A stretch of DNA of 52,655 nt, from NCBI GenBank assembly GCA_020848375.1, contig JADLAF010000214.1:1-52655 (forward strand), read 5' to 3'. The position numbers were made by a program, and so were the translations under genes. This DNA is from Ignavibacteriaceae bacterium. GTDB lineage: Bacteria; Bacteroidota; Ignavibacteria; Ignavibacteriales; Ignavibacteriaceae. The notes beneath the pieces were generated by a model. It had not been told where the DNA came from and did no database searches. It saw only the letters and a program-made list of their open reading frames with translations. The first letter of the stretch is position 1; every line of letters begins with the position of its first letter. Shown one piece after another: positions 15,947 through 21,069 of this stretch.

Positions 15947-16801
15947 TCAGCCCAGGTAGGTACGCAGGTTCTTGCTGCGCGACGCATGGCGCAGTCTTCT
16001 GATCGCCTTTTCCTTTATTTGCCTTACACGTTCCCGGGTTAAACTGAATTTTTCACCAATTTCTTCAAGCGTGAGTGAATGTTCTTTGTTAAGTCCGAAA
16101 TACAGTCGGATAACTTCTGCCTCGCGTTCGGTAAGGGTTGAAAGAGCTCTTTCAATTTCCATCTTGAGTGACTCACTCATCAGATTATTGTCAGGTGTGG
16201 GCTGCTGGTCATTCTGAAGAACATCAAGCAGGCGGTTGTCCTCTCCCTGAGCAAAAGGAGCATCCATGGAAACATGGCGACCTGAGATCTTGAGGGTGTC
16301 TGCAACCTCATTCACATCCATATCAAGCTCCTGTGCCAGCTCGGAGGCACTCGGCTCCCGTTCATACTCCTGCTCAAGACTGCTGTATGCTTTACCAATT
16401 TTATTAAGTGCCCCGACACGGTTAAGAGGAAGTCTTACAATTCGGGATTGCTCCGCAAGTGCTTGCAGAATTGACTGCCTGATCCACCAGACCGCGTAAG
16501 AGATGAATTTAAATCCTCTGGTTTCATCAAATCTCTTTGCTGCTTTAATAAGACCCAGATTTCCCTCATTGATGAGGTCACCCAGGGACAATCCCTGATT
16601 CTGGTATTGTTTAGCCACACTCACAACAAATCGGAGGTTTGCCTTAGTTAATGCTTCAAGTGCAGACTGATCCCCTTTTTTAATTCTGATAGCTAATTCA
16701 ATTTCCTGATCGGGTGTTAATAAACTTACTTTGCCTATTTCCTGAAGATATTTATCAAGTGACTGGCTTTCCCGGTTTGTATATTGTTTGGTTATTCTCA
16801 C
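15947..16801 (-). CDS. rpoD: Primary RNA polymerase sigma factor (SigA/RpoD, short Bacteroidota-Chlorobi type)
   Basis: This 284-aa protein has regions 1.2 ([20 protein letters not shown]), 2 ([35 protein letters not shown]), 3 ([14 protein letters not shown]) and 4 ([20 protein letters not shown]). It lacks region 1.1 and the long spacer of proteobacterial RpoD, as in Bacteroidota and Chlorobi, which fits the TAnnTTTG promoters seen in this window. The start is GTG ([13 protein letters not shown]). It lies 15 bp downstream of an EutN-type gene. Housekeeping transcription is the expected role. With one such gene seen, I take it as the major sigma factor. Confidence 0.92.
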
Positions 16802-16816
16802 TTAGAGCACCTGAAT

Positions 16817-17080
16817 TTAGTTATTGATTGAGTCAATTATTCCGACAATTGAAGCATCAACCGGTGCCATATCCACCGGCAGAGGTATTACTGCTTCACT
16901 TGCGGTAACATAGAGTACTTTTTCCCCCGGACCGGCTCCGCTGGTATCCACTGCGATAAGCGGTTCCCCTTTCGGATTTTCATCAGAATCAACCGGTTGA
17001 ATTAGCATCAGTTTGAATCCTTCGAGGGCAGGATATTTTTTGGTTGCCCAGATATTTCCGATTACTTTTGCTAAATACAA
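16817..17080 (-). CDS. EutN/CcmL-type microcompartment vertex protein (BMC-P), second copy
   Basis: This 87-aa protein (TTG start, MYLAKVIGNIWATKKYPALE) has the family hallmarks AVDTSGAGPGEKVLYVT and PVDASIVGIIDSI. EutN/CcmL proteins form pentamers that cap the vertices of bacterial microcompartment shells. Relative to the first copy, the usual G-SAR loop after the GAG motif is replaced by TASEAVIPLP. No BMC-H shell hexamer or cargo enzyme is encoded nearby. A TATTTTTG element at 17103-17110 could be a -7 promoter box for this gene and rpoD, but no matching -33 box is evident. Confidence 0.87.
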   Translation of the reverse strand: MYLAKVIGNIWATKKYPALEGFKLMLIQPVDSDENPKGEPLIAVDTSGAGPGEKVLYVTASEAVIPLPVDMAPVDASIVGIIDSINN

Positions 17081-17139
17081 TCTGTATAAATTTTCAAGAT
17101 TGCAAAAATACGAAAATTAGGGGAGAAATCTGAGTCATT

Positions 17140-17424
17140 TCACTCTCCCTTGCCGGCATTCTTTACGTCCAGTCTGTCAACTATTGCCATTACGACTGCG
17201 TCAACCGGCTTATTTTTGGTATTGGTTGTCTGGCGAGCGGAGCTTCCTGTTGCAACCAGAACCACCTCACCGTGTCCGGCACCAACACTATCAACCGCAA
17301 CAACAAAATTGTCCTTTTCCTTATACTGCAAATCAAGCTGCCTGACGATCAGAAGCTTGGCTCCTGTAAGACTTTCATCTTTTCTGGTTGCCCAGACTGT
17401 ACCAATAATTTTTCCTAAAATCAC
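17140..17424 (-). CDS. EutN/CcmL-type microcompartment vertex protein (BMC-P), first copy
   Basis: This 94-aa protein (GTG start, MILGKIIGTVWATRKDESLT) shows the complete family pattern: kLLIV, AVDSVGAGHGEVVLVATGSSAR and PVDAVVMAIVDRLDV. It should assemble as a pentamer and cap vertices of a protein shell, or act alone. Its GTG overlaps the stop of the PIN-domain gene as GTGA, which suggests translational coupling. The two EutN copies differ clearly, so they are not a recent duplication. Confidence 0.9.
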   Translation of the reverse strand: MILGKIIGTVWATRKDESLTGAKLLIVRQLDLQYKEKDNFVVAVDSVGAGHGEVVLVATGSSARQTTNTKNKPVDAVVMAIVDRLDVKNAGKGE

Positions 17425-17825
17425 GTACCAACTCCTGAAACTATAAATTTAAGATCCGCGAATTCCGCTACCCCCTTAGGGTATTCCCCCATGCGTAACG
17501 TAGCTATTTTTATTTTATTTACCTTTGCTGTCGCCAGAAACAATGCCTTGTCGCTGCTCAGTCCTGAAAACAATTCTGATTCCGCCTCCAGTGCGTATCT
17601 TGAATGAACCCCAAGAACATTCAAGCCATTCAGCAGACTCCGCACTGCCGTTCTTTCGTGAGAATCTTCACATAAAGTAAACAATTCGACCGCGTTAATT
17701 ACCGAAGTAAAGCAGCTTTCCTCAGAAAGCAGAATTTCAAGCAGCGAAAAAGTTGCTTTTTCTCCTGGATCACTATGTGTTAGATGCTCCAAAAGAATAT
17801 CGGTATCCAATAACAGACCTCTCAT
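17421..17825 (-). CDS. PIN-domain protein (VapC-like ribonuclease)
   Basis: This 134-aa protein has a PIN-like pattern: acidic residues in LLLDTDILLEHL (Asp7, Asp9), SVINAVELF (Glu47) and SSDKALFLATA (Asp92). The usual fourth acidic site is replaced by TLRMGEYP, where Glu114 may serve. PIN domains cut RNA with divalent metal; VapC toxins are the best-known group. The gene overlaps the preceding 59-aa ORF by ATGA and the following EutN gene by GTGA. It could be a toxin, or a PIN nuclease recruited to this operon; the sequence alone does not decide. Confidence 0.8.
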   Translation of the reverse strand: MRGLLLDTDILLEHLTHSDPGEKATFSLLEILLSEESCFTSVINAVELFTLCEDSHERTAVRSLLNGLNVLGVHSRYALEAESELFSGLSSDKALFLATAKVNKIKIATLRMGEYPKGVAEFADLKFIVSGVGT

Positions 17826-18001
17826 TTTGGATTACCAAGGGTTCCTTTAACTTTCAGCAACTGCTTTATGATTTCCACCGGCATTTTCTGCAGTTTAGAC
17901 AACTTTTCTGCGCTGACTGTTTCATTTGTTCCAAACTTTTTCCGGTCTTCATATAAACTTGAGACGAACAGTCTGGATGATTCGGCAATCTTCATTTTCA
18001 T
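17822..18001 (-). CDS. Small 59-aa protein, candidate antitoxin of the PIN protein
   Basis: An ATG (18001-17999) overlapping the deoB stop as ATGA opens a 59-codon frame that ends in a TGA overlapping the PIN-gene ATG as ATGA. The protein starts MKMKIAESSRLFVSSLYEDR, contains the helical segment VSAEKLSKLQKMPVEIIKQ and ends LGNPK. It is basic and mostly helical. I recognise no AbrB, ribbon-helix-helix or Phd pattern with confidence. Size and position, immediately upstream of a PIN gene with overlapping codons, are typical of VapB-like antitoxins, so that role is inferred from context only. A second ATG two codons in is also possible. Confidence 0.7.
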   Translation of the reverse strand: MKMKIAESSRLFVSSLYEDRKKFGTNETVSAEKLSKLQKMPVEIIKQLLKVKGTLGNPK

Positions 18002-19161
18002 GAATTAAGAAAACTTACTCCCTGGAGTTCATTCTGAACCGAGAAAAACTCTGTTATACTTTTACCAACGTCTGAAAAACTACTCCTGGTCCCCAGATTT
18101 TTACCCTCTTTACCTCTTCTGTAAACCAGCAATGGCACATACTCCCTTGAGTGATCAGTGCTCAGGGTAGTCGGGTCATTGCCATGGTCAGCAGTTATAA
18201 TAATCATATCGGTTTCATCAGCAGAAGCCAAAATTTCAGGGAGCTGCTTATCGAACTCTGCCAAAGCCAGGGCGAAACCACGAGGATCATTCCTGTGACC
18301 ATAATAGACATCAAAATCCACTAAATTTGCGAAGATGAATGAATCCTTCTCTGACTTTATTGTCTGAATGATTCGCATTGTACCTTCTGAATTTGATTTT
18401 GTAGGTATCGCTTCATCAATTCCCTTATAATTAAAAAGATCACCTACTTTTCCGATTGAAATTGTTTTTACTCCGCCCTTTTGCAAATAATTAAATACTG
18501 TAGCCGATGGCGGGTCCATCGAAAAATCTTTTCGGTTTACAGTCCTTGAAAAATTTCCTTTTTTTCCGACAAATGGTCTGGCTATTACTCTGCCTACGAT
18601 CTCAGGCGGAACTAAAATTTCATTCCGTGTTACTTCACAAATTTTATACAATTCAGGAAGTGGTATCACATCTTCATGAGCCGCAATCTGAAAAACTGAA
18701 TCCGCCGATGTATAGATAATCGGATATCCGGTATTTATATGTTCTTCCCCAAGCTCTTTTATAATTTCGGTACCTGATGCAGCTCTATTTCCCAAAAAAC
18801 CACTAAGATTATTTTTCTCGAGAAATCTTTTTGTGATTCTCCCGGGGAATCCGTCCGGATAGTATGTGAAATCAAAATCAACATGAATTCCGGCAAGTTC
18901 CCAGTGTCCGGTGGTAGAATCCTTCCCTTTTGAAACTTCAGCCATTTTGCCGAATGAAGCAGACGGAAACGACACAGAGGGGACCCCCTGAATTAAGGAT
19001 ATATTGCCGAGTCCGAGAGCTTTTAAATTCGGGAGACTAAGTCCTTGTACTTTCCTTGCCATATTAACAAGTGTGTTACTACCTTCATCCTTATAGAAAT
19101 GCGCATCAGGTAGCTCACCTATCCCCACTCCATCAAGTATAATGAGAACGCAGTTATTAAT
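17998..19161 (-). CDS. deoB: Phosphopentomutase DeoB, with probable AUU start
   Basis: DeoB interconverts ribose/deoxyribose 1- and 5-phosphates and belongs to the alkaline phosphatase superfamily. Family motifs are clear: GVGIGELPDA, GKMAEVSKGKDSTTGHWE, FANLVDFDVYYGHRND, ITADHGNDPTTLSTDHSRE. The first usual start codon in frame is a GTG at 19128, but this lies after LIILDG, whose Asp is an essential metal ligand in the family. Upstream codons down to the stop of the previous gene include no ATG, GTG or TTG. An ATT at 19161 gives (M)NNCVLIILDGVGIG and is preceded by TAGGAA at good Shine-Dalgarno distance, so I propose an AUU start. The stop overlaps the next small gene (ATGA). Confidence 0.85.
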   Translation of the reverse strand: MNNCVLIILDGVGIGELPDAHFYKDEGSNTLVNMARKVQGLSLPNLKALGLGNISLIQGVPSVSFPSASFGKMAEVSKGKDSTTGHWELAGIHVDFDFTYYPDGFPGRITKRFLEKNNLSGFLGNRAASGTEIIKELGEEHINTGYPIIYTSADSVFQIAAHEDVIPLPELYKICEVTRNEILVPPEIVGRVIARPFVGKKGNFSRTVNRKDFSMDPPSATVFNYLQKGGVKTISIGKVGDLFNYKGIDEAIPTKSNSEGTMRIIQTIKSEKDSFIFANLVDFDVYYGHRNDPRGFALALAEFDKQLPEILASADETDMIIITADHGNDPTTLSTDHSREYVPLLVYRRGKEGKNLGTRSSFSDVGKSITEFFSVQNELQGVSFLNS

Positions 19162-19170
19162 TGACGTTTC

Positions 19171-21069
19171 CTATAATTGTAAAACTTTATTTCCGCCGGT
19201 CTCAGATGCCTTTTTAACGGCAAGGCGCAGATTTTCAAGAAGTTCATCCACATCTGTCCTTTCGGAGGAGTTAATCAGTCCTACTGACACTGTAAAGGTG
19301 GTGCTTTTACTGCCGGATGAAACCGGAATCCGTGCAATCCTTACCCTTATTTTATCTGCTCTCACGGCAAGATCCTGTTCATCATTATGAAGAAAGAAAA
19401 GTCCAAATGTCAGATCATCAAGCCGACCGCAAAAGCTGAGTGGGTCAAGCTCCTGATATAGTGCTTTAGCGAACTCCTTCATGGTAATTTTTATCATGTG
19501 CGGGTCGCTAAGCTCCTGCCGGTTTTTACCTTCGTCAATCTTGATGAGTGCAATATTGGAACGCAGATCAAGAATTTTTGCCTTTTCCAGTTCCTCTGTA
19601 ACACGTGTGCGGAAAAATGATGCCGAATAAACGCTGGTATCAGGATCAAAAGTTATCAGTGATTTTAGCCGGCGTATCTGTCCGAAGGCACGCATCAGGA
19701 TGCCAAACTGACCGGTTACCTTCCTAAGATAATCATGGTCACGCTGCGTGAAGGAATTTTTCTTCATATTCTCATAACAAAGAGCCCCCAGAACTTCACT
19801 GTTATAAATAATCGGGACAGCCAGAAATGAACCGTCCAGGATAATGCTTTCCTCATGATTAAAACGGTGCATTGATGCAGCGCTTAAATCTCCAATGCGA
19901 ACCTGACTTCCGGTATATACACATTTGCCGACTATAGTATTTTCACGGTCAATAACCGTATCAGGGTGGATATAACTGAATGTTTTAGGATTCATTACTG
20001 AAGAAATCTTAAACTGATCTTCCTCCTGGCGCCAGGTTACAAAAGTAAAACAGTCAGCTTCAACCAGAACTGAAGCAAGCGTGGCTATTGAGTGATATAA
20101 TGTGTGTTCATCATCAGTGGGGATATTCTGACTAAGAAAATCTGCGAACCCTTCTGAGCGCCTGTTTGCTATTGATTCAGCATGTTTATGTGCAAAAAGA
20201 TCTATTAAAACAGTAATAAGCCGTACGAACCGTCCGAGCATATACATTTGCTCAATCCCAAATGCATCAACCGTTTTTGAGTCAACTGCGAGGATACCGA
20301 TCAGATTGGAGTTATGAAAAACAGGAACTCCGAGAAAGCTCTTAATTTTCTGCGGCTGTGAATAGTATCTGAAGTTCTCCCTTTCACTTATTGGAGGGAT
20401 ATCTGTCAGTAACCCGGGCTCTTGTTTACTGATAATCTGTCCAAGTATATCATTCTGGATCTCCAGCTTTCTCTTTTCGATTTCATGGCTAACCGAAGCA
20501 TATTTTTCTATGGTCAGTGATGATTTTCGTTTGTCATACCAGAAATAAATTGCAGTATGGGCAGAGAATAATTCTCTGACAATAATAAGAATTCTTTCCA
20601 GAAGAAAGCTGAGTTGCTGGTTGGCTCCCACATCCAGAGGAAATTCTTCGGTGGCAAGATTTCGGAATTTCTCAAGACTCAGTTCCGGATCATCTCCTGA
20701 ACTGCTGATTTTATTCCCTATGGAGGAAATGTTGTTTTCCGTAAGAACCCGTGTGGATTTGCCAACAATAGCGAATCCTTCATCCACATGGTCAAGATTA
20801 ACATCTGTGTAGTCAGTCGGCTTCTTCGAGACAATTTCAAAATCATCTTCTTCCGGATCAATTATGGAATCAGATGCCCCCGGCTTTCCATTATCGGCAG
20901 GCGGTTCAGTCTGTGCCTTTTTATCTTTGTCGAGTTTAAGGAAAAGTAACACAGAGGTAATGAGCAGAACGACAAAGGTAACCGACTTTAAGAGAAAATC
21001 CTCAAAAAGAATGAACAGTACCAAAAGTGTAACAGCGGCCACAATCAGCAGCGCATTGCTGTATTTCAT
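19171..21069 (-). CDS. Membrane double-GAF protein with degenerate GGDEF domain
   Basis: This 632-aa protein has two N-terminal membrane helices (about residues 5-48) and an acidic/proline linker. Two GAF-like regions (about 145-300, with FLGVPVFHNSNLIGILAVDS, and 320-470, with FLAVPIIYNSEVLGALCYEN) follow. The C-terminal domain (about 475-632) ends VSVGLIN...ELLENLRLAVKKASETGGNKV, as in GGDEF domains. The GGDEF signature itself reads GRLDD, so cyclase activity is unlikely; it may bind GTP or a protein partner. It lies 53 bp after engB and 10 bp before the proposed deoB start, so it is part of the engB-to-NlpC run. Confidence 0.78.
   Translation of the reverse strand: MKYSNALLIVAAVTLLVLFILFEDFLLKSVTFVVLLITSVLLFLKLDKDKKAQTEPPADNGKPGASDSIIDPEEDDFEIVSKKPTDYTDVNLDHVDEGFAIVGKSTRVLTENNISSIGNKISSSGDDPELSLEKFRNLATEEFPLDVGANQQLSFLLERILIIVRELFSAHTAIYFWYDKRKSSLTIEKYASVSHEIEKRKLEIQNDILGQIISKQEPGLLTDIPPISERENFRYYSQPQKIKSFLGVPVFHNSNLIGILAVDSKTVDAFGIEQMYMLGRFVRLITVLIDLFAHKHAESIANRRSEGFADFLSQNIPTDDEHTLYHSIATLASVLVEADCFTFVTWRQEEDQFKISSVMNPKTFSYIHPDTVIDRENTIVGKCVYTGSQVRIGDLSAASMHRFNHEESIILDGSFLAVPIIYNSEVLGALCYENMKKNSFTQRDHDYLRKVTGQFGILMRAFGQIRRLKSLITFDPDTSVYSASFFRTRVTEELEKAKILDLRSNIALIKIDEGKNRQELSDPHMIKITMKEFAKALYQELDPLSFCGRLDDLTFGLFFLHNDEQDLAVRADKIRVRIARIPVSSGSKSTTFTVSVGLINSSERTDVDELLENLRLAVKKASETGGNKVLQL

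What the first reader, a model, noticed from the sequence alone, without database searches (positions are those of the whole stretch)
16817..18001. PIN nuclease, small partner and two EutN vertex proteins chained into the primary sigma operon
Seen: deoB/59-aa ORF overlap as ATGA, 59-aa ORF/PIN as ATGA, PIN/EutN as GTGA; then a second EutN and rpoD follow closely. Known: EutN/CcmL proteins cap microcompartment vertices and PIN proteins cut RNA; they are not normally coupled. Inference: either these vertex proteins serve a shell encoded elsewhere, or they form shell-free pentamers with a role tied to RNA turnover or sigma expression. No shell hexamer or cargo gene is in the window.
Basis: partly seen in the sequence, partly recalled or inferred. 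Interest (0 to 1): 0.66.

Follow-up and report, generated by a model that had tools for sequence, protein, structure and literature searches.

The report
Vertex genes of a scattered DNA-sugar microcompartment
Two genes next to the main sigma factor of an uncultured Ignavibacteria bacterium encode corner pieces of a protein organelle whose other parts are scattered over the genome, and the enzymes that carry its packing tags indicate that it breaks down deoxyribose and ribose phosphates, probably from DNA and RNA.

Summary
The gene order is real: deoB, 59-aa ORF, PIN, EutN, EutN, rpoD, with 4-nt overlaps. The PIN-EutN coupling is not a functional unit. The two EutN proteins are BMC-P vertex proteins of a microcompartment encoded in pieces elsewhere. 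The genome also has a third BMC-P, two BMC-H and a PduT-like BMC-T beside a PduS/RnfC-like gene. This matches the published FRAG type, for which no signature enzyme was known (Sutter 2021). EutN-EutN-rpoD recurs in 37 of 40 BMC+ loci of the class. BMC genes co-occur with a deoxyribose-phosphate aldolase bearing an N-terminal encapsulation-peptide-like helix (42 of 45 BMC+ genomes; 1 of 74 BMC-, a weak chance hit) and an acetaldehyde-dehydrogenase-type enzyme (41 of 45; 1 of 74), which ends in such a helix in all 17 complete copies read. BMC+ genomes also have a long RpiB. deoB, in the window, feeds this pathway. I conclude: a dispersed SPU-type (nucleic-acid sugar phosphate) metabolosome. The 59-aa/PIN pair is a degenerate VapBC-like module that follows rpoD rather than the BMC.

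The parts
17998..19128 (-). deoB, phosphopentomutase; supplies (deoxy)ribose-5-phosphate, the predicted substrate of the organelle. True start is upstream (about 19158)
   Evidence: NCBIfam TIGR01696/NF003766 over cut-off; adjacent to BMC-P in 29 of 37 class loci; deoB in 33 of 45 BMC+ and 3 of 74 BMC- genomes
17822..18001 (-). 59-aa ORF, shortened partner of the PIN protein (80-119 aa in most relatives)
   Evidence: aligned with 13 homologues in the same position; no Pfam hit for it or for longer homologues
17421..17825 (-). VapC-like PIN protein with a non-conserved active site across its clade
   Evidence: PF01850 28.0 bits; clade profile matches VapC 7by2, E 2.4e-5; active-site survey of 30 sequences
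17140..17424 (-). BMC-P 1 (EutN/CcmL vertex protein)
   Evidence: PF03319 112.7 bits; closest solved chain 5v74, E 6e-23
16817..17080 (-). BMC-P 2 (EutN/CcmL vertex protein), TTG start
   Evidence: PF03319 100.9 bits; closest solved chain 5v74, E 6.5e-15
15947..16801 (-). rpoD, primary sigma factor; conserved downstream neighbour of the vertex genes
   Evidence: Sigma70 r1.2, r2, r3 and r4 domains; order kept in 37 of 40 loci
19171..21069 (-). GAF/GGDEF-like gene, conserved upstream context of the block, not part of the organelle
   Evidence: tblastn matches upstream of deoB/rpoD in BMC+ and BMC- loci

Best explanation
The two EutN genes encode vertex pentamers of a bacterial microcompartment whose genes are scattered over about seven places in Ignavibacteria genomes. 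The organelle takes in 2-deoxyribose-5-phosphate and probably ribose-5-phosphate, made from nucleosides with the help of DeoB (the window gene). Encapsulated DeoC splits deoxyribose-5-phosphate into glyceraldehyde-3-phosphate and acetaldehyde. The shell holds the acetaldehyde while an encapsulated CoA-acylating aldehyde dehydrogenase turns it into acetyl-CoA. A second RpiB with an added N-terminal domain handles ribose-5-phosphate. A PduS-like protein beside a PduT-like BMC-T with the pore cysteine probably carries electrons across the shell. Shown: the genes, their co-occurrence, the terminal extensions, the conserved vertex/deoB/sigma order. Inferred: encapsulation, flux, redox role. The 59-aa/PIN pair is a separate VapBC-like module that stays beside rpoD.
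For: Own genome: 3 BMC-P, 2 BMC-H, 1 BMC-T with PduS/RnfC-like neighbour; DeoC with about 70 extra N-terminal residues, EutE-type AldDH, long RpiB, DeoB (window). Class survey: DeoC extension in 42 of 45 BMC+ and 1 of 74 BMC-; AldDH in 41 of 45 and 1 of 74. Amphipathic DeoC N-terminus (20 of 20 BMC+, 0 of 20 BMC-) and AldDH C-terminus (GxGIS.xEI.KIIKEF). Relative G085 has a contiguous RpiB-DeoC-BMC-P-AldDH-BMC-H locus, three enzymes with such tails. In other phyla DeoC with the same extension has shell genes within 3 kb in 15 of 21 loci; unextended DeoC 0 of 10; Ignavibacteria none. BMC-T aligns with solved PduT-type chains including the cysteine.
Against: No expression, structure or enzyme data. 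The own MAG is 88.75% complete and its AldDH runs off the contig, so its own C-terminal tail is unseen. No PduL phosphotransacylase in the genome. Co-occurrence counts are not corrected for shared ancestry. BMC+ genomes G065 and G096 lack the DeoC extension but carry a different, PVM-like locus; G114 has no DeoC hit (74% complete). The AlphaFold helix for the DeoC tail has pLDDT about 60.
Confidence: 0.83

Rival explanations
1. PIN, its partner and the EutN proteins form one RNA-linked unit of shell-free pentamers acting on RNA turnover or sigma expression.
For: Translational overlap PIN/EutN in the window; 22 of 37 loci keep PIN directly before the first EutN.
Against: All 40 BMC-P genomes tested have BMC-H-domain genes. 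PIN is missing before EutN in 15 BMC+ loci and sits before rpoD without EutN in BMC-negative families.
Confidence: 0.03
2. The shell genes are vestigial or mis-regulated leftovers; no functional organelle is made.
For: Genes scattered in housekeeping operons with no dedicated regulator seen; many families of the class have no BMC.
Against: Shell genes, tagged DeoC and tagged AldDH are kept together across 11 families and absent together; reading frames are intact.
Confidence: 0.06
3. It is a metabolosome for another substrate, for example a sugar phosphate cleaved by the class II aldolase near the third BMC-P.
For: A class II aldolase gene lies near BMC-P3 in own and several relatives; a PVM-like locus with a class II aldolase exists in G013.
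Against: The aldolase lies in a ddl/rarA gene block and is missing near BMC-P3 in some BMC+ genomes; no terminal tag was examined on it, whereas DeoC is tagged in 42 of 45 BMC+ genomes.
Confidence: 0.08

Closest known systems
FRAG microcompartments (Sutter et al. 2021, PMC8217296)
   Same: Shell genes in several places, three BMC-P, Ignavibacteriae named as hosts, AldDH elsewhere
   Different: The paper gives FRAG no signature enzyme; here DeoC and RpiB with terminal extensions are proposed
SPU (sugar phosphate utilization) microcompartments
   Same: DeoC, RpiB and AldDH; proposed role in using products of DNA breakdown (PMC8217296)
   Different: SPU genes are clustered in a locus; here they are dispersed, vertices sit with deoB and rpoD, RpiB carries a different (TIGR02536-like) N-terminal domain, and BMC-T is PduT-like
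HO microcompartment of Haliangium ochraceum
   Same: BMC-P triplet; some hosts have an unlinked DeoC with an EP-like N-terminus (PMC8217296)
   Different: HO still has a main locus with shell genes together
PduS/PduT of propanediol microcompartments
   Same: BMC-T with the cysteine next to a PduS/RnfC-like gene
   Different: No diol dehydratase context seen; redox role untested
VapBC toxin-antitoxin pairs
   Same: Small upstream gene overlapping a PIN gene; PIN clade matches VapC
   Different: Partner matches no known antitoxin family; fixed chromosomal position beside rpoD; acidic residues not conserved

Membership tests
FRAG BMC | Shell genes spread over several genomic places | tested here: met
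   Four contigs in own genome; in the single-contig genome G113: P3 881 kb, BMC-T 2045 kb, BMC-H 2320 kb, P1P2 2423 kb
FRAG BMC | BMC-P triplet | tested here: met
   Three BMC-P in own genome and most BMC+ genomes
FRAG BMC | Published shell-protein subclades (colour HMMs) | not testable with these tools
   Those HMMs were not available
SPU BMC | BMC-associated DeoC (pfam01791 type) | tested here: met
   Extension in 42 of 45 BMC+ genomes
SPU BMC | BMC-associated RpiB (pfam02502) | tested here: met
   Long RpiB with BMC-type N-terminal domain; only 12 complete ones inspected, own included
SPU BMC | CoA-acylating AldDH | tested here: met
   41 of 45 BMC+ genomes, C-terminal helix in all 17 complete FRAG copies read
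SPU BMC | Enzyme and shell genes clustered in one locus | tested here: not met
   Dispersed in Ignavibacteria; clustered only in relative G085
SPU BMC | Enzymes enclosed in a shell | not testable with these tools
   Needs microscopy or proteomics
VapBC | PIN domain protein | tested here: met
   PF01850 over cut-off
VapBC | Recognised antitoxin upstream | tested here: not met
   No Pfam or PADLOC hit; weak AlphaFold model, pLDDT 67.5
VapBC | Conserved acidic active site | tested here: not met
   First acid D in 16 of 30, third D in 15 of 30, last site R/K in 23 of 30
VapBC | Growth arrest reversed by partner | not testable with these tools
   Bench test

The most novel reading that the evidence does not exclude
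The organelle is wired into housekeeping operons instead of one inducible locus: vertices with deoB and the primary sigma gene, hexamers in a relA-like/yqgF/upp/tmk block, the third vertex with dprA. It would then be a constitutive nucleic-acid-salvage organelle whose part ratios are set by housekeeping transcription, and this would give the FRAG class of microcompartments its function.
Probability: 0.4. Interest if true: 0.72.

Novelty: new variant of a known kind. Interest (0 to 1): 0.6.

Why it matters
The 2021 catalogue of microcompartments left FRAG types without a signature enzyme and expected their function to emerge from environmental correlation. Here the missing enzymes are found by their terminal extensions and by co-occurrence, which gives a testable function (deoxyribose and ribose phosphate from nucleic acids) for at least the Ignavibacteria FRAG set. 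It also shows that a microcompartment can stay intact across many families of a class with no locus at all, so locus-based surveys miss such cargo. Relatives named Melioribacter roseus and Stygiobacter electus carry the tagged DeoC.

Tried and rejected
PIN plus EutN as one unit: rejected because they separate in both directions. PduL as acyltransferase: absent. 59-aa ORF as an AbrB-type antitoxin: suggested by eye from longer relatives, but no Pfam, PDB-sequence or confident fold support, so left open. Anti-phage defence: no PADLOC hit. Three literature searches for a FRAG or DeoC-microcompartment assignment found only the 2021 catalogue or unrelated papers; subscription journals, preprints and supplements were not searchable. 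Sigma-70 promoter scan gave about what chance gives.

Full report
Observation. The block exists as described. On the minus strand deoB, a 59-aa ORF, a PIN protein and EutN-1 overlap by 4 nt each (ATGA, ATGA, GTGA), EutN-2 follows after 59 nt and rpoD after 15 nt. Pfam confirms two EutN_CcmL proteins, a PIN domain and a primary-type sigma factor; NCBIfam confirms phosphopentomutase.

Is there a shell elsewhere? Yes. The window's genome (3.46 Mb MAG, 88.75% complete) has four PF00936 matches: two BMC-H on C91 and one double-domain BMC-T on C220. It also has a third BMC-P on C99. The BMC-T lies directly after a PduS/RnfC-like gene and is closest to PduT-type proteins, keeping the pore cysteine. 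Sutter et al. 2021 (PMC8217296) describe such sets as FRAG microcompartments: shell genes in up to six places, a BMC-P triplet, hosts including Ignavibacteriae, and no obvious signature enzyme. Axen et al. 2014 (PMC4207490) noted seven BMC-P genes over five loci in Melioribacter roseus. So vertex genes away from other shell genes are known for this lineage.

Conservation. Of 119 genomes of the class, 45 have BMC-P; all 40 of these that were tested have BMC-H-domain genes. Around the BMC-P genes of 40 loci, EutN-EutN-rpoD is kept on one strand in 37. The three others are compact BMC loci. deoB is directly upstream in 29 and PIN directly before the first EutN in 22. The other shell genes also sit in recurring housekeeping contexts: BMC-H in a relA-like/yqgF/upp/tmk block, BMC-P3 beside dprA near rarA and ddl, BMC-T beside the PduS-like gene (gene names read from sequence by me unless a call is cited).

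What the organelle does. DeoB being in the vertex operon suggested a (deoxy)ribose pathway. Three searches over the class tested it. EutE-type aldehyde dehydrogenase (NF011927, E <= 1e-60) occurs in 41 of 45 BMC+ and 1 of 74 BMC- genomes. DeoB occurs in 33 of 45 and 3 of 74. DeoC is general, but the BMC+ ones are longer. Reading 20 BMC+ and 20 BMC- DeoC proteins, all 20 BMC+ copies have 68-80 extra N-terminal residues: an amphipathic helix (own: MNESDISRVINQVFLEK), conserved cysteines and a second helix. None of the 20 BMC- copies has it. A search with the extension alone hits 42 of 45 BMC+ genomes and one BMC- genome, the latter at E 0.003 over 39 residues and on another contig than its DeoC. 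AlphaFold gives a helix at residues 3-23 followed by a low-confidence linker, at modest confidence.

The AldDH of BMC+ genomes ends in a linker and a helix of the form GxGIS.xEI.KIIKEF in all 17 complete copies read; the one BMC- AldDH (G042) lacks it. The own copy is cut by the contig end. BMC+ genomes carry a long RpiB (own: L216:866-1504) whose added N-terminal domain matches TIGR02536 (ethanolamine utilization) in the copy scanned; the two BMC- RpiB read in full begin at the ordinary start of the enzyme. These are the enzymes that define SPU microcompartments, which the 2021 paper proposes to use DNA breakdown products.

Two independent controls. First, the relative G085 holds a contiguous locus RpiB - DeoC - BMC-P - AldDH - BMC-H - EutJ - CcmP-like BMC-T - 133-aa protein - BMC-P - BMC-P, with helix-like tails on RpiB, DeoC and AldDH. 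Second, a scan of 84,980 named genomes with the own DeoC (best 80 loci kept) shows that outside Ignavibacteria, DeoC proteins matching into the extension have shell genes within 3 kb in 15 of 21 loci. DeoC proteins without it do so in 0 of 10. Ignavibacteria loci have none nearby, as expected for dispersed genes. In the single-contig genome G113 the parts lie at 866 kb (AldDH), 881 (P3), 1741 (RpiB), 2045 (BMC-T), 2302 (DeoC), 2320 (BMC-H) and 2423 (P1, P2, deoB) of 3742 kb.

The PIN pair. PIN is missing from 15 BMC+ loci, and PIN lies directly upstream of rpoD without EutN in BMC-negative genomes of families f3, f4, f5, f7, f11 and f18; in G053 a decayed PIN remnant remains where the BMC-P genes are gone. 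Its strong-hit association with BMC is much weaker (23 of 45 against 9 of 74). Across 30 sequences the glutamate is invariant, but the first acid is D in 16, E in 12 and H in 2, the third site is D in 15, and the last acidic site is K or R in 23. So nuclease activity is doubtful in much of the clade. The partner is 59 aa here and mostly 80-119 aa in relatives, with a conserved C-terminal part and no recognised family. Its role is unknown; a link to sigma expression is possible but untested.

Mechanism, steps marked. Nucleosides give (deoxy)ribose-1-phosphate (established knowledge), DeoB gives the 5-phosphates (annotation), DeoC gives acetaldehyde (annotation), AldDH gives acetyl-CoA (annotation), the shell holds acetaldehyde (by analogy with EUT and SPU types), PduS/PduT pass electrons across it (inference). 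Localisation of any enzyme inside a shell is inference from the tails. The acyltransferase is not identified.

Limits. Counts are per genome and not corrected for shared ancestry; joint absences in several families help but this was not modelled. Literature coverage is open-access only.

Noticed in passing
window 19128-19160 (minus strand): The deoB reading frame extends upstream of the GTG at 19128 through LDGVG; no ATG/GTG/TTG is available there, so translation may start at a rare ATT near 19158, or the base calls are wrong.
   Followed up: partly
L236-L248 (G020, G059, G044, G001, G089, G115, G080, G107, G094, G103, G070, G116, G024): A VapC-like PIN gene, in most loci with a small upstream partner, sits directly before the primary sigma gene in many families of the class, with or without BMC genes.
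   Followed up: partly
L249 (G013), L067 (G065), L076 (G096): PVM-like compact BMC loci. In G013 the only BMC-P genes are in this locus, although FRAG-type BMC-H, BMC-T and extended DeoC persist elsewhere.
   Followed up: partly
L144:222-1091 and homologues: The DeoC extension has conserved cysteines, often several (CCKDGICTDNLC), perhaps a metal or Fe-S site.
   Followed up: no
L010:17055-17348 and homologues: A 97-aa protein of unknown family is encoded next to BMC-P3 in own genome and four relatives.
   Followed up: no
L051, L054, L056, L060, L066 upstream of BMC-P1: A 67-aa cysteine-containing (zinc-ribbon-like by eye) protein conserved between the GGDEF gene and BMC-P1 or rpoD.
   Followed up: no
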